Shown here one piece after another: positions 22,037 to 61,270 of a stretch of DNA of 64,000 nt. Made by a program: the position numbers and the translations under genes. This stretch comes from Marivita lacus (GTDB taxonomy: Bacteria; Pseudomonadota; Alphaproteobacteria; Rhodobacterales; Rhodobacteraceae). The notes under the pieces are model-generated. The model was given only the letters and a program-made list of their open reading frames with translations. It searched no databases and had not been told where the DNA came from. The stretch covers positions 622,632-686,631 of the forward strand of contig NZ_BMFC01000001.1 of NCBI RefSeq assembly GCF_014637725.1, given 5' to 3'. Within the stretch, counting starts at the first letter, position 1; each line of letters begins with the position of its first letter.

Positions 22037-22243
22037 TCAATCAGCTGCAGCTGCAGCCACCAGAGCAATCAGGACCAGCGGGATGATGATCCCAGCGGCC
22101 GAAGAGCTTGCCTGAGCTTCTTCAACCACAACGACCGGCTCCATCACCACGTCGCCTTTAGCCATCTTGCCACCTTCGTGACCAGCGGCAAAAGCTGTTG
22201 TTGCAGCGCCAGCAAATGCAGCGGCGAGAACGAGTTTCTTCAT
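22037..22243 (-). CDS. Small exported or membrane protein of unknown function
   Basis: 68 aa. I do not recognise a named family. It starts with a clear signal peptide, MKKLVLAAAFAGAATTAFAA (cleavage likely after AFA), followed by a short hydrophilic stretch with HEGGKMAKGD, a valine-rich VVMEPVVVVEE, and a C-terminal hydrophobic helix (AAGIIIPLVLIALVAAAA). The mature protein of about 48 residues could be a tail-anchored periplasmic micro-protein. GGAGG lies 5 bases upstream of the ATG, so it is likely translated. The neighbouring terminator would end its transcript. Confidence 0.75.
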   Translation of the reverse strand: MKKLVLAAAFAGAATTAFAAGHEGGKMAKGDVVMEPVVVVEEAQASSSAAGIIIPLVLIALVAAAAAD

Positions 22244-53387: not shown

Positions 53388-54302
53388 TCAGCGCCCAGAG
53401 CTGAGAACCATGCACAACGCATCGAGGTCTTCAAGAGTGTCGTAGTTGATCGTGACAGTCCCGTCTTCCCCACCAGCGCTGTGATTGATCGACACTTTCA
53501 TACCCAGAGCCGCAGAAAGATCGCCTTCCAGCGCCTTTGTGTCCGCATCCTTTTCGCCAGAACTGCCGGAGGATTTCGATGTGGTCTTTGTCTTTTTCTG
53601 ACCGTCGGGGTCCTGCGCTTCCCGGACAAGGCGCTCCGTGTCCCGCACAGACAGCCCATTCCGCACAATCTGACCGGCCAAAAGGACAGGATCGGGCGCA
53701 GTGACCAAGGCGCGTGCATGGCCAGCCGACAGCTTACCATCCGTGACCGCCTTCTTGACCACGTCGGGCAGATTCAACAACCGCAGCAGATTGGCTATAT
53801 GGCTGCGGCTTTTGCCCAAGGCCTGTGCCAGCTTTTCCTGCGTGTGACCAAAGCGCGTCATGAGCTGCTCATAGCCAGCCGCTTCTTCAATCGCGTTCAG
53901 GTCGGCCCGCTGAATGTTTTCGATGATCGCAATTTCAAGAACGTCCTCGTCCGAGAATTCCCGAATGACAACGGGCACCTCGTGAACGGCCGCCGCCTGT
54001 GCTGCGCGCCACCGTCGTTCGCCGGCAACAATTTCGTACTGGTTTTCGGCATCTCCCCGCCGACGAACGATCAATGGCTGGATCACACCCTTGCTCTTGA
54101 TCGAATTTTTCAGTTCTTCCATTGCTTCGGCATCGAACTGACGCCGCGGCTGGTTCGGATTAGGGAAAAGCTGATCAACAGGAAGCATGCGTGTCGCGCG
54201 TTGCTGTGTTGGTGAGTCAGCTGCAGTCGTGGGCTCGATATCCGCCATCAGCGCGGACAAACCACGCCCCAAGCCACGCCGTTGTTCCCTTTTTTCGGAC
54301 AT
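53388..54302 (-). CDS. parB: Chromosome partitioning protein ParB
   Basis: 304 aa. CTP-dependent clamp that binds parS. The lead RRGLGRGLSALMADIE is typical. CTP-binding motifs: IVAGERRWRAAQ and IENIQRADLNAIEEA. Helix-turn-helix: TQEKLAQALGKSRSHIANLL. Lys/Ser-rich linker near residues 235-255, then the dimerisation domain. Three parS sites are within 4.2 kb of the gene. Nine bases after parA. Confidence 0.97.
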   Translation of the reverse strand: MSEKREQRRGLGRGLSALMADIEPTTAADSPTQQRATRMLPVDQLFPNPNQPRRQFDAEAMEELKNSIKSKGVIQPLIVRRRGDAENQYEIVAGERRWRAAQAAAVHEVPVVIREFSDEDVLEIAIIENIQRADLNAIEEAAGYEQLMTRFGHTQEKLAQALGKSRSHIANLLRLLNLPDVVKKAVTDGKLSAGHARALVTAPDPVLLAGQIVRNGLSVRDTERLVREAQDPDGQKKTKTTSKSSGSSGEKDADTKALEGDLSAALGMKVSINHSAGGEDGTVTINYDTLEDLDALCMVLSSGR

Positions 54303-54311
54303 GTTCCCTAC

Positions 54312-55124
54312 CTACGCTGCTGTCATCGTTTCATTTTTACCCAGGAATTCCCGCGCCAAGGCGCGATAGGCAATGGCCCCTTTGGAATTGGTGTCATACT
54401 CCAGAACCGGCATCGCGTATGAGGGCGCCTCGCTGACCCTGACATTCCGTGGAATGACCGTCTTGAAAACAAGATCGCCGAGATTGTCGCGTGCATCCGT
54501 TTCAACCTGCTGAGACAGATTGTTCCGGGCATCGTACATCGTCAGGACCACACCCTCGATCCGCAAATTCGGGTTCGCAGATTGCCGAACTTCGCGGATG
54601 GTCAGCATGAGCTGGCTCAGACCTTCCAGGGCAAAGAACTCGCTCTGCAACGGAACAAGCACGGAATGTGCCGCGACCATAGCGTTCACGGTGAGCAAGT
54701 TCAGCGAGGGTGGACAATCAATCAGAATGAAATCGAAGGCAAACTGATCCATATCCGTCTGCCGCAACGCGTCATGCAGCAGGTAGATCCGTTTTTCATT
54801 GGCGATCAATTCGATATCGGCAGAACTGAGGTCCGTCGTGGATGGCACCAGAAACAGATTGTCCTGCCCGGTCGTGCAGATGATGTCCGACAAAGGAAAA
54901 TCATCCAGAAGAAGATCATAGGTCGTCGCGCGCCGATCCTCCGGCATGACGCCCAGGCCGGTTGATGCGTTTCCCTGCGGATCGAGATCCACGATGAGAA
55001 CTTTCTGACCAATCTCAGCCAAGGCGGATGCAAAATTGATGGCAGTCGTTGTCTTGCCAACACCGCCCTTCTGATTTGCGATCGCGATGATTTTCGGGCC
55101 AACCGGGCGCGTGGGATCAAACAC
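54312..55124 (-). CDS. parA: Chromosome partitioning ATPase ParA
   Basis: 270 aa. Deviant Walker A KGGVGKTTTAINFASA at residues about 20-28, Walker B-type DFILIDCPPSLNLL, and LVPLQSEFFALEGLSQLM. ATP-driven dimer that binds DNA and pulls ParB-parS complexes. GTG at 55124 is preferred (GGAGG 8 bases upstream) and overlaps the end of rsmG by 8 bases; longer upstream starts lie inside rsmG. Confidence 0.96.
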   Translation of the reverse strand: MFDPTRPVGPKIIAIANQKGGVGKTTTAINFASALAEIGQKVLIVDLDPQGNASTGLGVMPEDRRATTYDLLLDDFPLSDIICTTGQDNLFLVPSTTDLSSADIELIANEKRIYLLHDALRQTDMDQFAFDFILIDCPPSLNLLTVNAMVAAHSVLVPLQSEFFALEGLSQLMLTIREVRQSANPNLRIEGVVLTMYDARNNLSQQVETDARDNLGDLVFKTVIPRNVRVSEAPSYAMPVLEYDTNSKGAIAYRALAREFLGKNETMTAA

Positions 55125-55704
55125 GGGAAAGACCTCCAATCTCCAAGATGGCAGCATCAGGATGTGTCACACTTGTATGCGCTTCACAGGCGAATCGCCA
55201 CTTCTTTTGCGCAGCATCCACCTCGGCACGCCACGATTCACCCTTCATGAAAAAAGCAACGCCTGTCGGAGCGAGGTGTTGTTCGGCAAATCCAAGCAGT
55301 TCTTCCAAAGGCGCAAGCGCACGGGCACTGATGACATCTGATTTCATGGGCGGAACGTTTTCAATCCTCTCGGCAATTACGGCAAACGGCGTTTTTGTTT
55401 CACGTGAAACAGTGCGCAAGAACGTGGCTTTCCGCTGATCGCTTTCAATCAGCGTGATATCAATGTCGCGATCCCCCAGAGCAATCGCGACAACTGCGCC
55501 TGGGAAACCCCCACCAGAACCAAGATCGACCCAGGATTTCGCATCCTTTGGGCACAGCGAGGCAACCTGCAGGGAATCACCGAAATGCCGATTACCAGCG
55601 TCCTTCAAAGAGTCCTGCGAGACGAGGTTTATCTTGGGCGACCACTTACGCAGCAATTCAAGGTAAATTTCCAAGCGCTCTTTTGTTTCACGTGAAACAT
55701 TCAT
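55117..55704 (-). CDS. rsmG: 16S rRNA (guanine527-N7)-methyltransferase
   Basis: 195 aa (GidB). Motif I is [32 protein letters not shown] follows, as in RsmG. ATG at 55704 overlaps the mnmG stop by 4 bases. Codons 3-7 (VSRET) and an internal copy (TVSRET) are encoded by perfect parS palindromes, so DNA-binding sites constrain this protein sequence at two places. Confidence 0.96.
55396..55411. promoter_or_regulatory. parS: parS site 1 (inside rsmG)
   Basis: TGTTTCACGTGAAACA, identical to the canonical 16-bp ParB-binding palindrome. It lies within rsmG coding sequence. Confidence 0.95.
55684..55699. promoter_or_regulatory. parS: parS site 2 (start of rsmG)
   Basis: Second exact copy of TGTTTCACGTGAAACA, covering codons 2-7 of rsmG, 288 bases from site 1. 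Confidence 0.95.
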
Positions 55705-57584
55705 CCTGCTGCGCGTTCCCGAGAACCAAACGATTTGAGGCGCGACAAGATCAAAAGCAAAGCGGACGGTGTCATTCCATCAATTCGGGAGGCCTGAGCG
55801 ATATTCGCCGGCTTCGACGCGGTCAGCTTCGTTTTCAACTCGTTTGAAAGCCCTTCAATATTTGCGAACGCAAAATCCGCCGGGATAACCTGCGCTTCAT
55901 CGCGGCGGAGTACTTCAATGTCTTTCTGCTGCCGTTCGATGTAATTGGCGTAAAGCGCATCTTTACCAAGCTGTTCTCGCGTTTTCTCATCGATGATCGC
56001 AATATCTGGCGCGACATCCAGAAGAGCTTCCCAAGTCACAGCCTCGATTGCCAGCGCTTCAAAGCCAGTCCGTTTTGAGCCATCCTGAGAAATCGGCACA
56101 CCGGCATCGACAAGCTGACGCGCTGAAATGATCAAGCCATCCAGAAGAGCACGGCCTTTTTTCAACCGGACCACTTTCTGTTCGAAGGCTTCCTGTCGTT
56201 CACCACTGACGCACCCAAGCAAGATCGCTTTGGGAGTCAGTCGCTGGTCTGCGTTATCCGCCCTGAGCGACAGACGATACTCGGCGCGGGAGGTGAACAT
56301 GCGGTAGGGCTCCGCAACGCCACGCGAAGTCAGATCGTCGATCATGACGCCAATATAACTGTCCGACCGGCTGAAGGTGAACGGATCCCGCCCAAAAGCG
56401 CGATGTGCCGCGTTCACCCCGGCAACGAGCCCCTGAGCTGCCGCTTCTTCATACCCCGTCGTACCGTTGATCTGACCCGCGAGGAAAAGCCCGCTACGGG
56501 ACTTCAATGACAGGTCGAGATTAAGTGCCCGAGGATCGACGTAATCATATTCGATAGCGTAGCCTGGTTGCAGGATTTCGGCCTGCTCTAACCCCTTGAT
56601 GGATCGCACGTAGTCTAGTTGCACATCTTCGGGCAGCGAGGTGGAAATTCCGTTCGGATAGATCGTGTGATCATCCAGCCCCTCGGGCTCAAGGAAAATC
56701 TGATGCGAGGTTTTGTCCGCGAAGCGCACAACCTTGTCTTCGATCGATGGGCAATATCGCGGACCGACACCTTCGATGTGACCACCGTACATGGCAGACC
56801 GAGAGAGATTGTCCCGAATGATCTGATGTGTCTTTTCGTTGGTATGCGTAATCGCGCAGGAGACTTGACGCGCAGTTGGTGCCTCGGAAAGGAATGAAAA
56901 CATCACCGGGTCATCATCGCCGGGCTGTTCGTCCAACCCATCCCAATTGATGGTTCGCCCGTCCAGCCGAGGTGGCGTTCCAGTTTTCAGACGGCCAAGC
57001 GGAAGGTCAAATGAATCCAACGTCTTTGCGAGGTCATTGGACGGACGTTCGCCCATCCGACCCCCGGAAATCTGGCGGTCCCCAATGTGAATAATCCCGC
57101 GTAGAAAAGTCCCCGTTGTCAGAACAACACAGGGAGCGGTCACCTTGCGGTCCCCGTCAATCATGACACCAGTTACAGACGTCCCGTCCAGGACAAGATC
57201 GGTCACCTCACCTATGACAATATCAAGATTCGGTTGAGACTTGGTGATCTCCAACATCTCGTTTTGGTAAATCTTGCGGTCCGCCTGCGTGCGCGGCCCT
57301 TGAACGGCCGGGCCCTTGCGTCGGTTCAGCAAGCGGAACTGGATACCCGCCTTGTCAGCAACGCGACCCATCACACCGTCGAAGGCGTCAATCTCGCGAA
57401 CAAGGTGCCCTTTCCCAAGACCACCGATAGCTGGATTGCAGGACATCACTCCGATACCAGCCTCGGTCAGTGTAACCAAAGCTGTGCGCGCGCCAAGGCG
57501 GGCTGCCGCATGGGCAGCTTCGCATCCTGCGTGTCCGCCACCGACAACAATGACATCGAAATCAAATTGTTTCACGTGAAACAC
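55701..57584 (-). CDS. mnmG: tRNA uridine-5-carboxymethylaminomethyl modification enzyme MnmG
   Basis: 627 aa (GidA). FAD-binding [20 protein letters not shown] and the GidA signatures [16 protein letters not shown] and [20 protein letters not shown]. With MnmE it builds the cmnm5 modification on wobble U34. The first codons MFHVKQ are encoded by parS site 3. Three bases downstream of mnmE and overlapping rsmG. Confidence 0.97.
57568..57583. promoter_or_regulatory. parS: parS site 3 (start of mnmG)
   Basis: Third exact copy of TGTTTCACGTGAAACA, spanning the first six codons of mnmG (MFHVKQ) and ending one base short of the start of its ATG. Confidence 0.95.
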
Positions 57585-57587
57585 TCC

Positions 57588-58871
57588 TTACTTTCCGATG
57601 CAGAAACTTGAGAAGACTTTGTCTAGCACATCTTCAACATCGACACGACCCACCAGTCTTTCAAGAGTGAAGATTGCTGAGCGGAGTTCTTCAGATGCAA
57701 GCTCATACTGAATGGGTCCGGACTGAGCGAAACCAAGCGCTTTGTGCAACGCGGCCCGACCTTGATCCAGAACCAGCTTTTGGCGTTCGTGGGAAACGAG
57801 ACCAGCAGACATCGCATGTGACAACAGATAGGTTTTTACGTCATCCATCAATTTCTGGACGCCTGCCCCAGTGACTCCGGACACCCCCTGCCCGTCATTC
57901 CGAAGATCGGATTTTCCCTCGATGACGATGTCATGACCCAGCGGAATCAAGTCGCCAAAACCGCCGGAGCCTTTGAGAAATATCCGAAGGTCCGCCGCTT
58001 CGGCTCGGTCCATTGCACGTTGGATGCCGATCGTTTCAATCACGTCACTGCTTTCACGAAGACCGGCTGTATCGAGAAAAGTCACCGGCAAGGAGTCGAG
58101 ATCCATCCGTACTTCGATGACATCCCGTGTTGTCCCAGCGATTTCAGAGGTAATCGCGGCATCGCGCCCGGCCAACATGTTGAGAAGCGTGGACTTGCCC
58201 GCATTGGGCGGACCGACAATCGCCACTTCAAAACCCGTTCTGACACGTTCCGCGACGCCAAAACCGCTGATTTCCAGATCCATGGTCTGGATGACTCCCG
58301 TCAGCAGACGTTCGACATCGGCCGAGACATCGACAGGCACCTCTTCATCGGCAAAGTCGATGGTCGCCTCTAGAAGTGACAGCGCATGGATAAGGTCAGC
58401 CCGCCAGGTTTCCGACTTTTCCCGCAGACGACCGGTAAATCCCTTGAGCGCCTGCTTGCGCTGCATTTCGGTTTCCGCGTCGATCAGATCTGCCAACGCT
58501 TCAACCTGAGTGAGGTCGAGCCGACCGTTGTTCAACGCACGCCGTGTGAATTCACCAGCCTCTGCAAAACGGTAGCCGGGGATGGATTTCAGGCAATCCA
58601 GTATGCTGTTGATGATGGCAATGCTGCCGTGGACATGAAATTCGACAACAGGTTCGCCAGTAAAACTCGCGCCATCCTCGAAGGTCAGAACCAGCGCTTC
58701 ATCGAGAAAGCCGCGTTCTTCGTGGACGAGTTTCCGAAGCGCGGTTTTCCTCGGTTGCGGAGGTTCAAACCCAAAGGACGTGCAACTGGTAAAGGCATCT
58801 GGCCCAGACACCCGGATGACAGCAACGCCTGATTTTCCTGGCACGGTGGCCAGGGCAAAGATCGTGTCCAT
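57588..58871 (-). CDS. mnmE: tRNA modification GTPase MnmE
   Basis: 427 aa (TrmE). N-terminal folate-binding domain (DTIFALATVPGKSGVAVIRV), helical domain, and an inserted G domain: G1 GPPNAGKS (220-227), G2 GTTRD, G3 DTAG (267-270). The G4 position reads GKSD (319-322) in place of the usual NKxD, so guanine recognition may be modified. It ends with the catalytic CxGK tail (FCIGK, C424). Works with MnmG on U34. Preceded by rho on the same strand. Confidence 0.96.
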   Translation of the reverse strand: MDTIFALATVPGKSGVAVIRVSGPDAFTSCTSFGFEPPQPRKTALRKLVHEERGFLDEALVLTFEDGASFTGEPVVEFHVHGSIAIINSILDCLKSIPGYRFAEAGEFTRRALNNGRLDLTQVEALADLIDAETEMQRKQALKGFTGRLREKSETWRADLIHALSLLEATIDFADEEVPVDVSADVERLLTGVIQTMDLEISGFGVAERVRTGFEVAIVGPPNAGKSTLLNMLAGRDAAITSEIAGTTRDVIEVRMDLDSLPVTFLDTAGLRESSDVIETIGIQRAMDRAEAADLRIFLKGSGGFGDLIPLGHDIVIEGKSDLRNDGQGVSGVTGAGVQKLMDDVKTYLLSHAMSAGLVSHERQKLVLDQGRAALHKALGFAQSGPIQYELASEELRSAIFTLERLVGRVDVEDVLDKVFSSFCIGK

Positions 58872-58892: not shown

Positions 58893-60161
58893 TTACGAAT
58901 TCATCGAGTCGAAGAACTCCGAATTGTTCTTTGTTTGCTTCAGCTTGGAGATCAGGAATTCGATCGCGTCCGTGGTGCCCATCGGGTTGAGGATACGGCG
59001 CAGCACGAATGTCTTTTGCAGGTCAATCTTGTCGACCAGCAGCTCTTCTTTGCGGGTGCCGGACTTGAGAATGTCCATTGCCGGGAATACGCGCTTGTCC
59101 GCGACCTTGCGATCCAGAACGATTTCCGAGTTACCCGTGCCTTTGAATTCTTCAAAGATCACTTCGTCCATGCGGCTTCCGGTGTCGATCAGCGCGGTTG
59201 CGATGATGGTCAGCGATCCGCCCTCTTCGATGTTGCGAGCCGCACCAAAGAACCGCTTGGGCCGCTGGAGCGCGTTTGCGTCCACACCACCGGTCAGAAC
59301 TTTGCCCGACGACGGGACAACTGTGTTGAAGGCTCTACCAAGTCTTGTGATCGAATCGAGAAGGATAACGACATCTCTCTTGTGTTCGACAAGGCGCTTG
59401 GCCTTTTCGATGACCATTTCAGACACAGCAACGTGACGCGTCGCAGGTTCATCAAAGGTGGACGACACGACTTCGCCTTTAACCGAACGCTGCATGTCGG
59501 TGACTTCTTCCGGGCGTTCGTCGATCAGCAGGACGATAAGGTAGCATTCCGGGTGATTGCGTTCGATGGAATGCGCGATGTTCTGCAGGAGAACGGTTTT
59601 ACCGGTACGCGGTGGCGCGACAATCAAGGAGCGCTGGCCTTTGCCGATGGGTGCTACGAGGTCGATGATGCGCGCGGACCGATCCTTGGCGGTGGGATCT
59701 TCGAATTCCATCGTCAGACGCTCGTCGGGATAAAGCGGCGTCAGGTTGTCGAAGGCGATCTTGTGACGGGCACGTTCCGGATCCTGGAAGTTGATCTGTG
59801 TGCAATCCATCAAGGCAAAATAGCGTTCGTTGTCTTCCGGTGCCCTCATTTCCCCGTCGATCGTGTCGCCTGTACGCAGCGAGAACTTCCGGATCATCTC
59901 GGGTGAGACGTAAATGTCATCGGGACCGGGCAGGTAGTTCGCTTCGGGGGAGCGCAGGAAACCGAACCCGTCCTGAAGCACTTCGAGAACGCCGTCACCG
60001 AAGACTGTCCAGCCCTCGTCCGCACGCTCGCGCAGGATCTGGAACATGATCTCGCCTTTGCGCATCGTCGATGCGTTTTCGATTTCGAGCTCTTCGGCCA
60101 TCGCCAGAAGGTCTTTGGGGCTTTTTGCCTTCAGATCGGCAAGGTTCAGCTTTTCAGTCAT
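58893..60161 (-). CDS. rho: Transcription termination factor Rho
   Basis: 422 aa RNA-dependent helicase. N-terminal [20 protein letters not shown] and the cold-shock-like RNA-binding domain ([20 protein letters not shown]). Walker A is [15 protein letters not shown], and [23 protein letters not shown] and [16 protein letters not shown] follow. ATG at 60161. Sits at the left edge of the presumed origin and points away from it. Confidence 0.97.
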
Positions 60162-60670
60162 GAAAAATCCCGGACCACGGATGTTCGCAGTCATTTTTTC
60201 TATGTGTCAGGAAAGTATCGCCCAGAACAGGACTGTTTTGCTCTTAGCCGAGGGGAGCTAGCCTGTCAAACACCTCCTAATTCTTAATAAAATAAGAAAT
60301 TTAGAAAGGATTTCGATGTTGTGGTGTGGTCTGTCTGCTGTGGATTATTGGATTGTACAGGATTAACCCCCAAGCCGTTGATCTGTGGGTAGATGTGGGT
60401 ATGAATGTGAATAACCCTATCCATGATCTATAAGTCATTGTTTAGTATTAATTAAAATACAGTGATCATGGGGATAACTCCGGTATGCAATGGTGGCGAC
60501 CTGCCGACAAGGGTGATTATACCCACACCCGACTTATCCCTTGCACAGCCCGTAAAACCTGTCCGCCCATCAAGAGTAACTTGCCGAGATCTCTACAGGC
60601 TTGCTGACGCGCCCGGATTTCCCCAAAACACTCATGTAAAGAAACCGACCTTGTCCGAAGAGTTGTCCAC
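60162..60670. other. oriC: Candidate chromosomal replication origin (oriC) between rho and maf
   Basis: About 0.5 kb without a credible gene, much richer in A+T than the rest. One perfect DnaA box on the minus strand, TGTGAATAA (60406-60414, i.e. TTATTCACA). Single-mismatch boxes: TGTGGATTA (60339-60347), TGGGGATAA (60469-60477), TTATACCCA (60517-60525) and TTGTCCACA (60663-60671). ATACCCACA also occurs at 60519-60527 and inverted at 60393-60401. AT-rich tracts at about 60277-60310 and 60439-60460 could be the unwinding element. Flanking genes point outward. In Caulobacter the origin also lies close to the maf-aroE-coaE-dnaQ cluster. Confidence 0.7.
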
Positions 60671-61270
60671 ATGAATCTCGACCTCGTCCTCGCCTCCGGC
60701 TCCCAGATCCGCGCCGATCTGCTGCGCAATGCGGGCATTCGATTCGATGTGCAGGTGGCTCGAATCGATGAAGAGGCCATTCGGAGCGCGCTCGAGGCCG
60801 AGGGTGCGTCGCCACGCGACATCGCCGACACTCTGGCCGAGATGAAGGCGCGCAAGGTATCGGACAAGACGCCCGGCGCGCTGGTGCTGGGGTGCGACCA
60901 GGTTCTGGCACTGGGCAACACCGTCTTCGCGAAACCGAACAGCCCAGATGAGGCGCGCGAGCAACTGAAAGCGTTGCGCAACCAGTCCCATACGCTTTTG
61001 TCGGCGGCGGTGCTCTACGAGAACGGAGAACCGAAATGGCGGCATGTCGGAGTTGTCCGGTTGCGGATGCGCGATGTCTCGGACAGCTATCTGGATGATT
61101 ACATAGAACGGAACTGGGACAGCGTTCGCCACTCTGTCGGCGGCTACAAGCTCGAGGAAGAAGGCGCGCGGCTGTTCACGCAGGTGCAAGGCGACTATTT
61201 CACGGTGCTTGGACTTCCGTTACTGGAACTTCTGAACCACCTTGTTTTGACCGGACGGATCGACGGATGA
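60671..61270 (+). CDS. maf: Maf family nucleotide pyrophosphatase
   Basis: 199 aa. Hydrolyses non-canonical or modified nucleoside triphosphates. The opening [19 protein letters not shown] corresponds to the Maf phosphate loop SGSPRR, here [17 protein letters not shown] and [14 protein letters not shown] follow the family. ATG at 60671, overlapping a DnaA-box-like TTGTCCACA. First gene right of the origin candidate; ends overlapping aroE. Confidence 0.92.

What the first reader, a model, noticed from the sequence alone, without database searches (positions are those of the whole stretch)
60162..60670. Likely chromosomal origin of replication between rho and maf
The only long non-coding stretch in the window, AT-rich, with one exact DnaA box (60406-60414) and at least four one-mismatch boxes (60339, 60469, 60517, 60663). 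Genes on both sides point outward (rho/mnmE/mnmG left; maf/aroE/coaE/dnaQ right), and three parS sites and parAB lie within 7 kb. The DnaA box set includes a recurring variant, ATACCCACA/TACCCACA (60384-60401 twice on minus, 60519-60527 on plus), spaced 10-12 bases from the perfect box, which may be a lineage-specific DnaA motif.
Basis: partly seen in the sequence, partly recalled or inferred. Interest (0 to 1): 0.75.

Follow-up and report, generated by a model that had tools for sequence, protein, structure and literature searches.

The report
Chromosome replication origin of a Marivita
This short AT-rich gap between the genes rho and maf is very probably where the chromosome of this marine bacterium starts to be copied, at the place where its family is already known to keep it; the one unusual detail is a conserved initiator site that sits right on the start of the neighbouring gene.

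Summary
The finding is essentially right and mostly ordinary: 60195-60670 is the probable chromosomal origin (oriC) of a Marivita species. That oriC lies next to maf in Rhodobacteraceae is already in print (PMC4793288, from DoriC). Support here: GC skew changes sign in this genome and at the orthologous place in relative G029 (a second relative, G019, agrees only loosely); three exact parS and parAB lie within 7 kb; DnaA-box-like 9-mers far exceed shuffles here and in related loci.

Corrections. No exact TTATCCACA is present; the 'exact' box fits only TTATNCACA and is poorly conserved (at most one mismatch in 2 of 14 Marivita). The TACCCACA tandem is in 4 of 14 Marivita and 0 of 83 others; the variant TTACCCACA is enriched family-wide, so this looks like a tolerated box variant, not a new motif. 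Conserved elements: TAATCCACA at 60339 (13 of 14 Marivita), TTATCC at 60534 (13 of 14; 40 of 83 others), and TTGTCCACA at 60663, overlapping the maf ATG at exactly -8 (13 of 14; 49 of 83 others). This box on the maf start codon is the most interesting part. Binding and replication were not tested.

The parts
60195..60670 (.). oriC: intergenic region between rho and maf
   Evidence: GC-skew flip, box enrichment, conserved place in relatives
58893..60194 (-). rho, transcription terminator Rho; left flank
   Evidence: Pfam Rho_RNA_bind, ATP-synt_ab, Rho_N
60671..61270 (+). maf; right flank
   Evidence: Pfam Maf E 6.8e-44
60221..60268 (-). conserved rho-side block, perhaps the rho promoter (TTGACA-N17-TAAGAG on the minus strand)
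   Evidence: conserved in the 14-row Marivita alignment (by eye); promoter reading is inference; the consensus scan found none
60275..60318 (.). AT-rich tract, probable unwinding element
   Evidence: 23% G+C; AT-rich at this place in the Marivita alignment (by eye)
60339..60347 (-). anchor DnaA box TAATCCACA
   Evidence: at most 1 mismatch in 13 of 14 Marivita and 29 of 83 others, within 13 bp of this place
60384..60414 (-). weak tandem boxes CTACCCACA, ATACCCACA, TTATTCACA, 10 and 12 bp apart
   Evidence: TGTGGN5TGTGGGTA in 4 of 14 Marivita, 0 of 83 others
60469..60477 (-). DnaA box TTATCCCCA
   Evidence: at most 1 mismatch within 6 bp in 7 of 14 Marivita and 6 of 83 others
60519..60527 (+). 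weak box ATACCCACA
   Evidence: the overlapping 60517 9-mer has at most 1 mismatch in 0 of 14 Marivita
60534..60547 (+). TTATCC-N4-CACA element at -137 of maf
   Evidence: TTATCC starting -139..-129 in 13 of 14 Marivita and 40 of 83 others; TTATCCN4CACA in 13 of 14 and 0 of 83
60663..60671 (+). DnaA box TTGTCCACA whose last A is the A of the maf ATG
   Evidence: at most 1 mismatch at exactly -8 in 13 of 14 Marivita and 49 of 83 others
55396..55411 (+). parS
   Evidence: exact 16-mer
55684..55699 (+). parS
   Evidence: exact 16-mer
57568..57583 (+). parS
   Evidence: exact 16-mer
53388..55157 (-). parA-parB
   Evidence: Pfam ParB_N, HTH_ParB, AAA_31

Best explanation
The rho-maf gap is the chromosomal oriC. 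Proposed working: DnaA first binds the conserved sites (TAATCCACA at 60339, the box at 60469, the box on the maf start at 60663), then fills the weak, roughly helically phased sites between (60384, 60394, 60406; 60519; TTATCC at 60534). From the 60339 box a DnaA-ATP filament runs left into the AT-rich tract 60275-60318 and opens it, the helicase is loaded there, and two forks leave, co-directional with rho/mnmE/mnmG/parAB on the left and maf/aroE/coaE/dnaQ on the right. Shown here: place, composition, box excess, conservation of position, skew inversion. Inferred: DnaA occupancy, order of binding, site of melting, helicase loading.
For: Own genome: GC skew negative or zero in 10 of 13 sampled 8-kb stretches left of the window and positive in 5 of 7 stretches right of it, on the 968-kb contig; local cumulative G-C minimum at 58570, 1.6 kb from the gap (window profile). 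Relative G029 (4.33-Mb contig): negative in 7 of 8 sampled stretches before maf, positive in 8 of 10 from there to 3.35 Mb, negative in the last two. Boxes with at most one mismatch: 30 in 14 Marivita (1.9 expected) and 186 in 83 others (10.7 expected), reached by 0 of 200 shuffles each (shuffles do not remove relatedness). Conserved places -332, -137, -8. GTAG stands 17 or 18 bases before the anchor box in 9 of 13 Marivita and 35 of 41 other boxes, and GATGATG, TAGTAG or GATGAT occurs in -400..-260 in 57 of 83 others and 4 of 14 Marivita, resembling the basal unwinding system of PMC8287927 (passages read). parS and parAB nearby; nearness to parAB, the GC-disparity minimum and a local G+C minimum were the criteria used to choose among predicted oriCs in a study of 101 Rhodobacteraceae strains (PMC6699656, passages read). 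PMC4793288 (passages read) says that oriC next to maf is conserved in Rhodobacteraceae in DoriC. The confidence went from 0.93 to 0.95 because.
Against: No perfect TTATCCACA in the gap. Skew is weak and noisy (3 of 13 left and 2 of 7 right stretches go the other way), and its local minimum is 1.6 kb to the left. In G019 skew is negative in 13 of 13 samples from 1.4 to 3.49 Mb, including the one just right of maf (3.478 Mb), so a flip there is not seen at the gap itself, only somewhere in the last 70 kb before the contig end, if the contig is circular. The GTAG/trio-like element beside the anchor box, common in relatives, is degenerate in this window. No CtrA (TTAAN7TTAA) or IHF site by the consensus used. 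Only 29 of 83 other loci have the anchor box with at most one mismatch near that place.
Confidence: 0.95

Rival explanations
1. The gap is only a divergent promoter region of rho and maf with DnaA as a transcription regulator; the true origin lies elsewhere nearby, for example at dnaA 90 kb away.
For: Conserved promoter-like block on the rho side; a box on the maf start codon is a typical place for a repressor; the skew minimum is 1.6 kb off and G019 shows no flip at the gap.
Against: Skew inversion here and in G029, parS cluster, several boxes at fixed places over 330 bp in relatives, DoriC statement. Around dnaA I fetched about 3.5 kb but made no search for an origin.
Confidence: 0.04
2. TACCCACA is a separate, lineage-specific initiator motif read by an altered DnaA or by another protein.
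For: 3 copies in the gap and none elsewhere in the window; enriched in the other 13 Marivita (6 seen, 0.16 expected) and in the 83 others (14 seen, 0.94 expected).
Against: It is one of many box variants with like enrichment; the tandem is in 4 of 14 congeners; the DnaA recognition helix looks ordinary.
Confidence: 0.05
3. The box on the maf ATG is conserved for maf translation or transcription and not for DnaA.
For: It overlaps the start codon, where sequence is constrained anyway; TTNTCCACATG occurs at 8 places in this genome; 34 of 83 other loci do not have it at -8 with at most one mismatch.
Against: The four commonest forms in the others (TTTTCCACATG 20, TTATCCACATG 16, TTATCCCCATG 5, TTGTCCACATG 3 of 83) are DnaA-box variants, and a one-mismatch box starts within -35..0 in 68 of 83 others.
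Confidence: 0.15

Closest known systems
oriC of other Rhodobacteraceae (PMC4793288 for Ketogulonicigenium vulgare and DoriC; PMC6699656 for 101 strains; passages of both read)
   Same: Next to maf; near parAB, GC-disparity minimum and a local low in G+C; degenerate DnaA boxes
   Different: The passages read give no map of the boxes; here the rho side lacks the hemJ-like gene seen in the relatives read
Caulobacter crescentus Cori (between hemE and COG1806; PMC1914354, PMC4468827, passages read)
   Same: AT-rich tract, few and weak DnaA boxes; neighbouring genes in part (recalled)
   Different: No TTAAN7TTAA and no TGATCCACA in the gap; hemE and COG1806 are not the flanks
Basal unwinding system (BUS) of bacterial origins (PMC8287927, passages read)
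   Same: A-rich trinucleotides, spacer and DnaA box in this order on one strand, clear in many relatives
   Different: In this window the trinucleotide part beside the box is degenerate and, by eye, further from the box than the 16 bp that the paper allows

Membership tests
Bacterial chromosomal oriC | Cluster of DnaA boxes above chance | tested here: met
   3 one-mismatch boxes in 480 bp, 1 of 1000 shuffles reaches this; none is exact
Bacterial chromosomal oriC | GC-skew minimum | tested here: met
   Sign change within 2 kb of the gap, from sampled stretches of one contig; G029 agrees; G019 only loosely. The whole genome was not summed.
Bacterial chromosomal oriC | AT-rich unwinding element | tested here: met
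   60275-60318, 23% G+C
Bacterial chromosomal oriC | Replication starts there | not testable with these tools
   needs marker frequency or a plasmid test
Rhodobacteraceae oriC | Directly next to maf | tested here: met
   maf starts at 60671; feature stated in PMC4793288
Caulobacter-type Cori | CtrA sites TTAAN7TTAA | tested here: not met
   0 in the window gap; in 1 of 14 Marivita and 11 of 83 others
Caulobacter-type Cori | G-boxes TGATCCACA (letters recalled) | tested here: not met
   0 in the gap
Basal unwinding system | DnaA box and, within 16 bp, three or more NAN trios | tested here: inconclusive
   GATGATG/TAGTAG/GATGAT in 57 of 83 others and 4 of 14 Marivita; degenerate in the window; the published search program was not run

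The most novel reading that the evidence does not exclude
In Rhodobacteraceae the right edge of oriC is a DnaA box built into the maf start codon (TTNTCCACATG), held at exactly -8 in most of the loci compared while the DNA between it and the next conserved site diverges. DnaA loading would then shut maf (a nucleotide pyrophosphatase tied to septum formation in Bacillus, recalled) while the origin is armed, coupling initiation to division or nucleotide clean-up. With the pair of perfect DnaA boxes before nrdJ in this genus, DnaA would govern both dNTP supply and maf.
Probability: 0.3. Interest if true: 0.55.

Novelty: new member of a known kind. Interest (0 to 1): 0.25.

Why it matters
It places the origin of a Marivita chromosome, shows which of its weak sites look selected, and offers a simple test: does DnaA at the edge of the origin control maf? 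That the family keeps oriC beside maf is known. A search for papers holding both Marivita and DnaA gave two; in the passages read neither deals with a Marivita origin. A search for papers holding DnaA box, start codon, maf, Alphaproteobacteria and origin together gave none.

Tried and rejected
Lineage-specific DnaA motif: rejected. CtrA and IHF control: no consensus sites in the gap. GANTC: 0 in this gap, 5 in 14 Marivita against 153 in 83 others (one search counts each palindrome twice); set against the GANTC rate of the 64-kb window the Marivita figure is about half of the expectation, so it is only a note. Structured RNA: no Rfam match in 59800-61000 or in the whole window. Consensus promoters: 0. 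Maf-start box in more distant loci: of 15 further loci fetched (4 same family, 11 other families of the class), L164, L165 and L169 have an exact box just before the maf start, 12 do not; whether maf is at the origin in those 12 was not tested, so this settles nothing.

Rows. The 97 loci are the window, 80, and 16 (L084, L098-L112). Fourteen rows (L083, L085-L097) were dropped as copies of the window or of loci already held, judged by equal contig lengths. Rows kept in the 83 others although faulty, mostly counting as misses in place tests: L022 (contig cut at maf, so its upstream piece is wrong) and L037, L108, L109 (no rho found). Shuffles do not remove relatedness; with loci merged at 5% shared 11-mers the maf-start box is in 38 of 71.

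Full report
Where it is. The window lies on a 968-kb contig (C1:622632-686631) of a 4.77-Mb, 65-contig assembly. The nearest named relatives of its Maf are Marivita (77-86% identity for those bearing the name); the genome search puts 16 of 60 relatives in the same genus. The gap between rho and maf is 60195-60670, or from 60162 if rho starts at its second in-frame ATG.

Composition. G+C is 45% in the gap against 59.9% in the window; the lowest 300-bp stretch of the window is here. In 2-kb bins GC skew is negative from 16 to 58 kb except one bin near zero (+0.002 at 22-24 kb), and positive from 58 kb on. In sampled stretches of the contig 10 of 13 left are negative or zero and 5 of 7 right are positive; the local cumulative minimum is at 58570, 1.6 kb left of the gap. 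In G029 the sign changes at maf: 7 of 8 samples negative before, 8 of 10 positive after up to 3.35 Mb, the last two negative. G019 agrees only broadly: 13 of 13 samples from 1.4 to 3.49 Mb negative, 5 of 7 from 0 to 1.2 Mb positive, with maf at 3.478 of 3.559 Mb; no flip is seen at the gap itself. Three exact parS and parAB lie 3-7 kb to the left.

Boxes. No TTATCCACA occurs in the window; four one-mismatch copies lie in or at the edge of the gap, of 12 in 64 kb. The genome has 18 exact copies, none at the gap. All three TACCCACA of the window are in the gap.

Relatives. I compared 97 loci (14 Marivita with the window, 83 others; dropped and faulty rows are named in Tried and rejected). Boxes with at most one mismatch are about 16 times the shuffled expectation in Marivita (30 against 1.9) and 17 times in the others (186 against 10.7). 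Five sites followed by place, at most one mismatch, Marivita of 14 and others of 83: 60339, 13 and 29; 60663, 13 and 49; 60469, 7 and 6; 60406, 2 and 8; 60517, 0 and 6. At random places in -700..-345 the rate is 0.0001 at a fixed position, 0.0011 with 6 and 0.0014 with 13 bases of tolerance. The word GTGGATTA is present anywhere in the 480 bp in 58 of 97 loci, one of them (L108) without rho. TTATCC near -137 stands in 13 of 14 and 40 of 83; in Marivita as TTATCC-N4-CACA (13 of 14; 0 of 83 others).

The maf-start box. The 9-mer ends on the A of the maf ATG. Marivita: TTGTCCACATG 9, TTATCCACATG 2, TTCTCCACATG, TTTTCCACATG and TTGTCCCCATG 1 each. Others: TTTTCCACATG 20, TTATCCACATG 16, TTATCCCCATG 5, TTGTCCACATG 3, the rest other words. 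In 77 of 97 loci an ATG stands at the start inferred from the alignment; 60 of these 77 have the box with at most one mismatch. With loci merged at 5% shared 11-mers it is in 38 of 71. TTNTCCACATG is found at 8 places in this genome, so the word alone proves nothing; its constancy at one gene is the point. No paper held all of the terms DnaA box, start codon, maf, Alphaproteobacteria and origin.

Layout of unwinding. In many of the relatives printed (about half of the others with the word) the strand reads AT-rich, GATGAT words, GTAGGG, some ten bases, then CTGTGGATTA or CCGTGGATTA. GTAG lies 17 or 18 bases before the box in 9 of 13 Marivita and 35 of 41 other boxes; the window is among those without it. 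This resembles the basal unwinding system.

DnaA. PF00308 matches twice in the genome: a full-length dnaA at C1:773146-773631 (match), 90 kb right of the gap, and a weak match in a 240-aa frame on C13. The first has all three DnaA domains of Pfam and reads FGGRDHTTV in the C-terminal helix, as does the solved DnaA 8btg, which argues against a changed specificity.

hemJ. In four relatives read (L014, L020, L039, L067) the extra DNA between rho and the origin is an ORF of family PF03653 (UPF0093; E 9e-52 or better), which I call hemJ-like from recall. In the window's genome the best PF03653 match is at C1:467677-468090, 215 kb away. The rho-maf gap is 470-496 bp in 14 of 14 Marivita, 914-1122 bp in 69 of 79 others and 513-578 bp in 10 of 79, so a short gap is not unique to Marivita.

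Literature. PMC4793288 (passages) states that the origin next to maf is conserved in Rhodobacteraceae according to DoriC; PMC6699656 (passages) placed oriC in 101 strains of the family by Ori-Finder and curation. So the place is known. What I add is the ranking of sites by conservation and the box on the maf start codon.

Noticed in passing
L153:2198-2248 (G000:C2:379197-379247): Two exact convergent DnaA boxes, 51-52 bp from end to end, lie about 300 bp before nrdJ (B12-dependent ribonucleotide reductase, checked in this genome only). The exact pair with 20-45 bases between is in 13 of 61 genomes, all of this genus (13 of 17), one place each, 0 for the reversed control. The origin itself has no exact box.
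   Followed up: partly
window 60195-60670 and G000:C1:467677-468090: A hemJ-like gene (PF03653) stands between rho and the origin in relatives (4 of 4 read) but is 215 kb away here. Short gaps also occur in 10 of 79 other loci, so it has perhaps left this place more than once.
   Followed up: partly
window 60195-60670: GANTC (CcrM site, recalled) is absent from this gap and the rarest of eight like palindromes in Marivita (5 in 14 loci) but the commonest in the other loci (153 in 83).
   Followed up: no
window 60171-60192: A terminator-like hairpin with T-run at the very start of rho (both strands; 2 found, 0.5 expected in shuffles); perhaps a leader element of rho if translation starts at the second ATG.
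   Followed up: no
window 22037-22243 (-): A 68-aa ORF with a signal-peptide-like start in the only other stretch of 150 bp or more without an ORF of 100 aa.
   Followed up: no
L164 (G056): A relative of another family with eight boxes of at most one mismatch, four exact, in the 331 bp before maf: a candidate origin at maf outside the family; skew not checked.
   Followed up: no
L002 (G000:C13:69657-69959): Second, weak Bac_DnaA match in a 240-aa frame; could be an Hda-type protein or a DnaA-like plasmid replicase (both recalled); not looked into.
   Followed up: no
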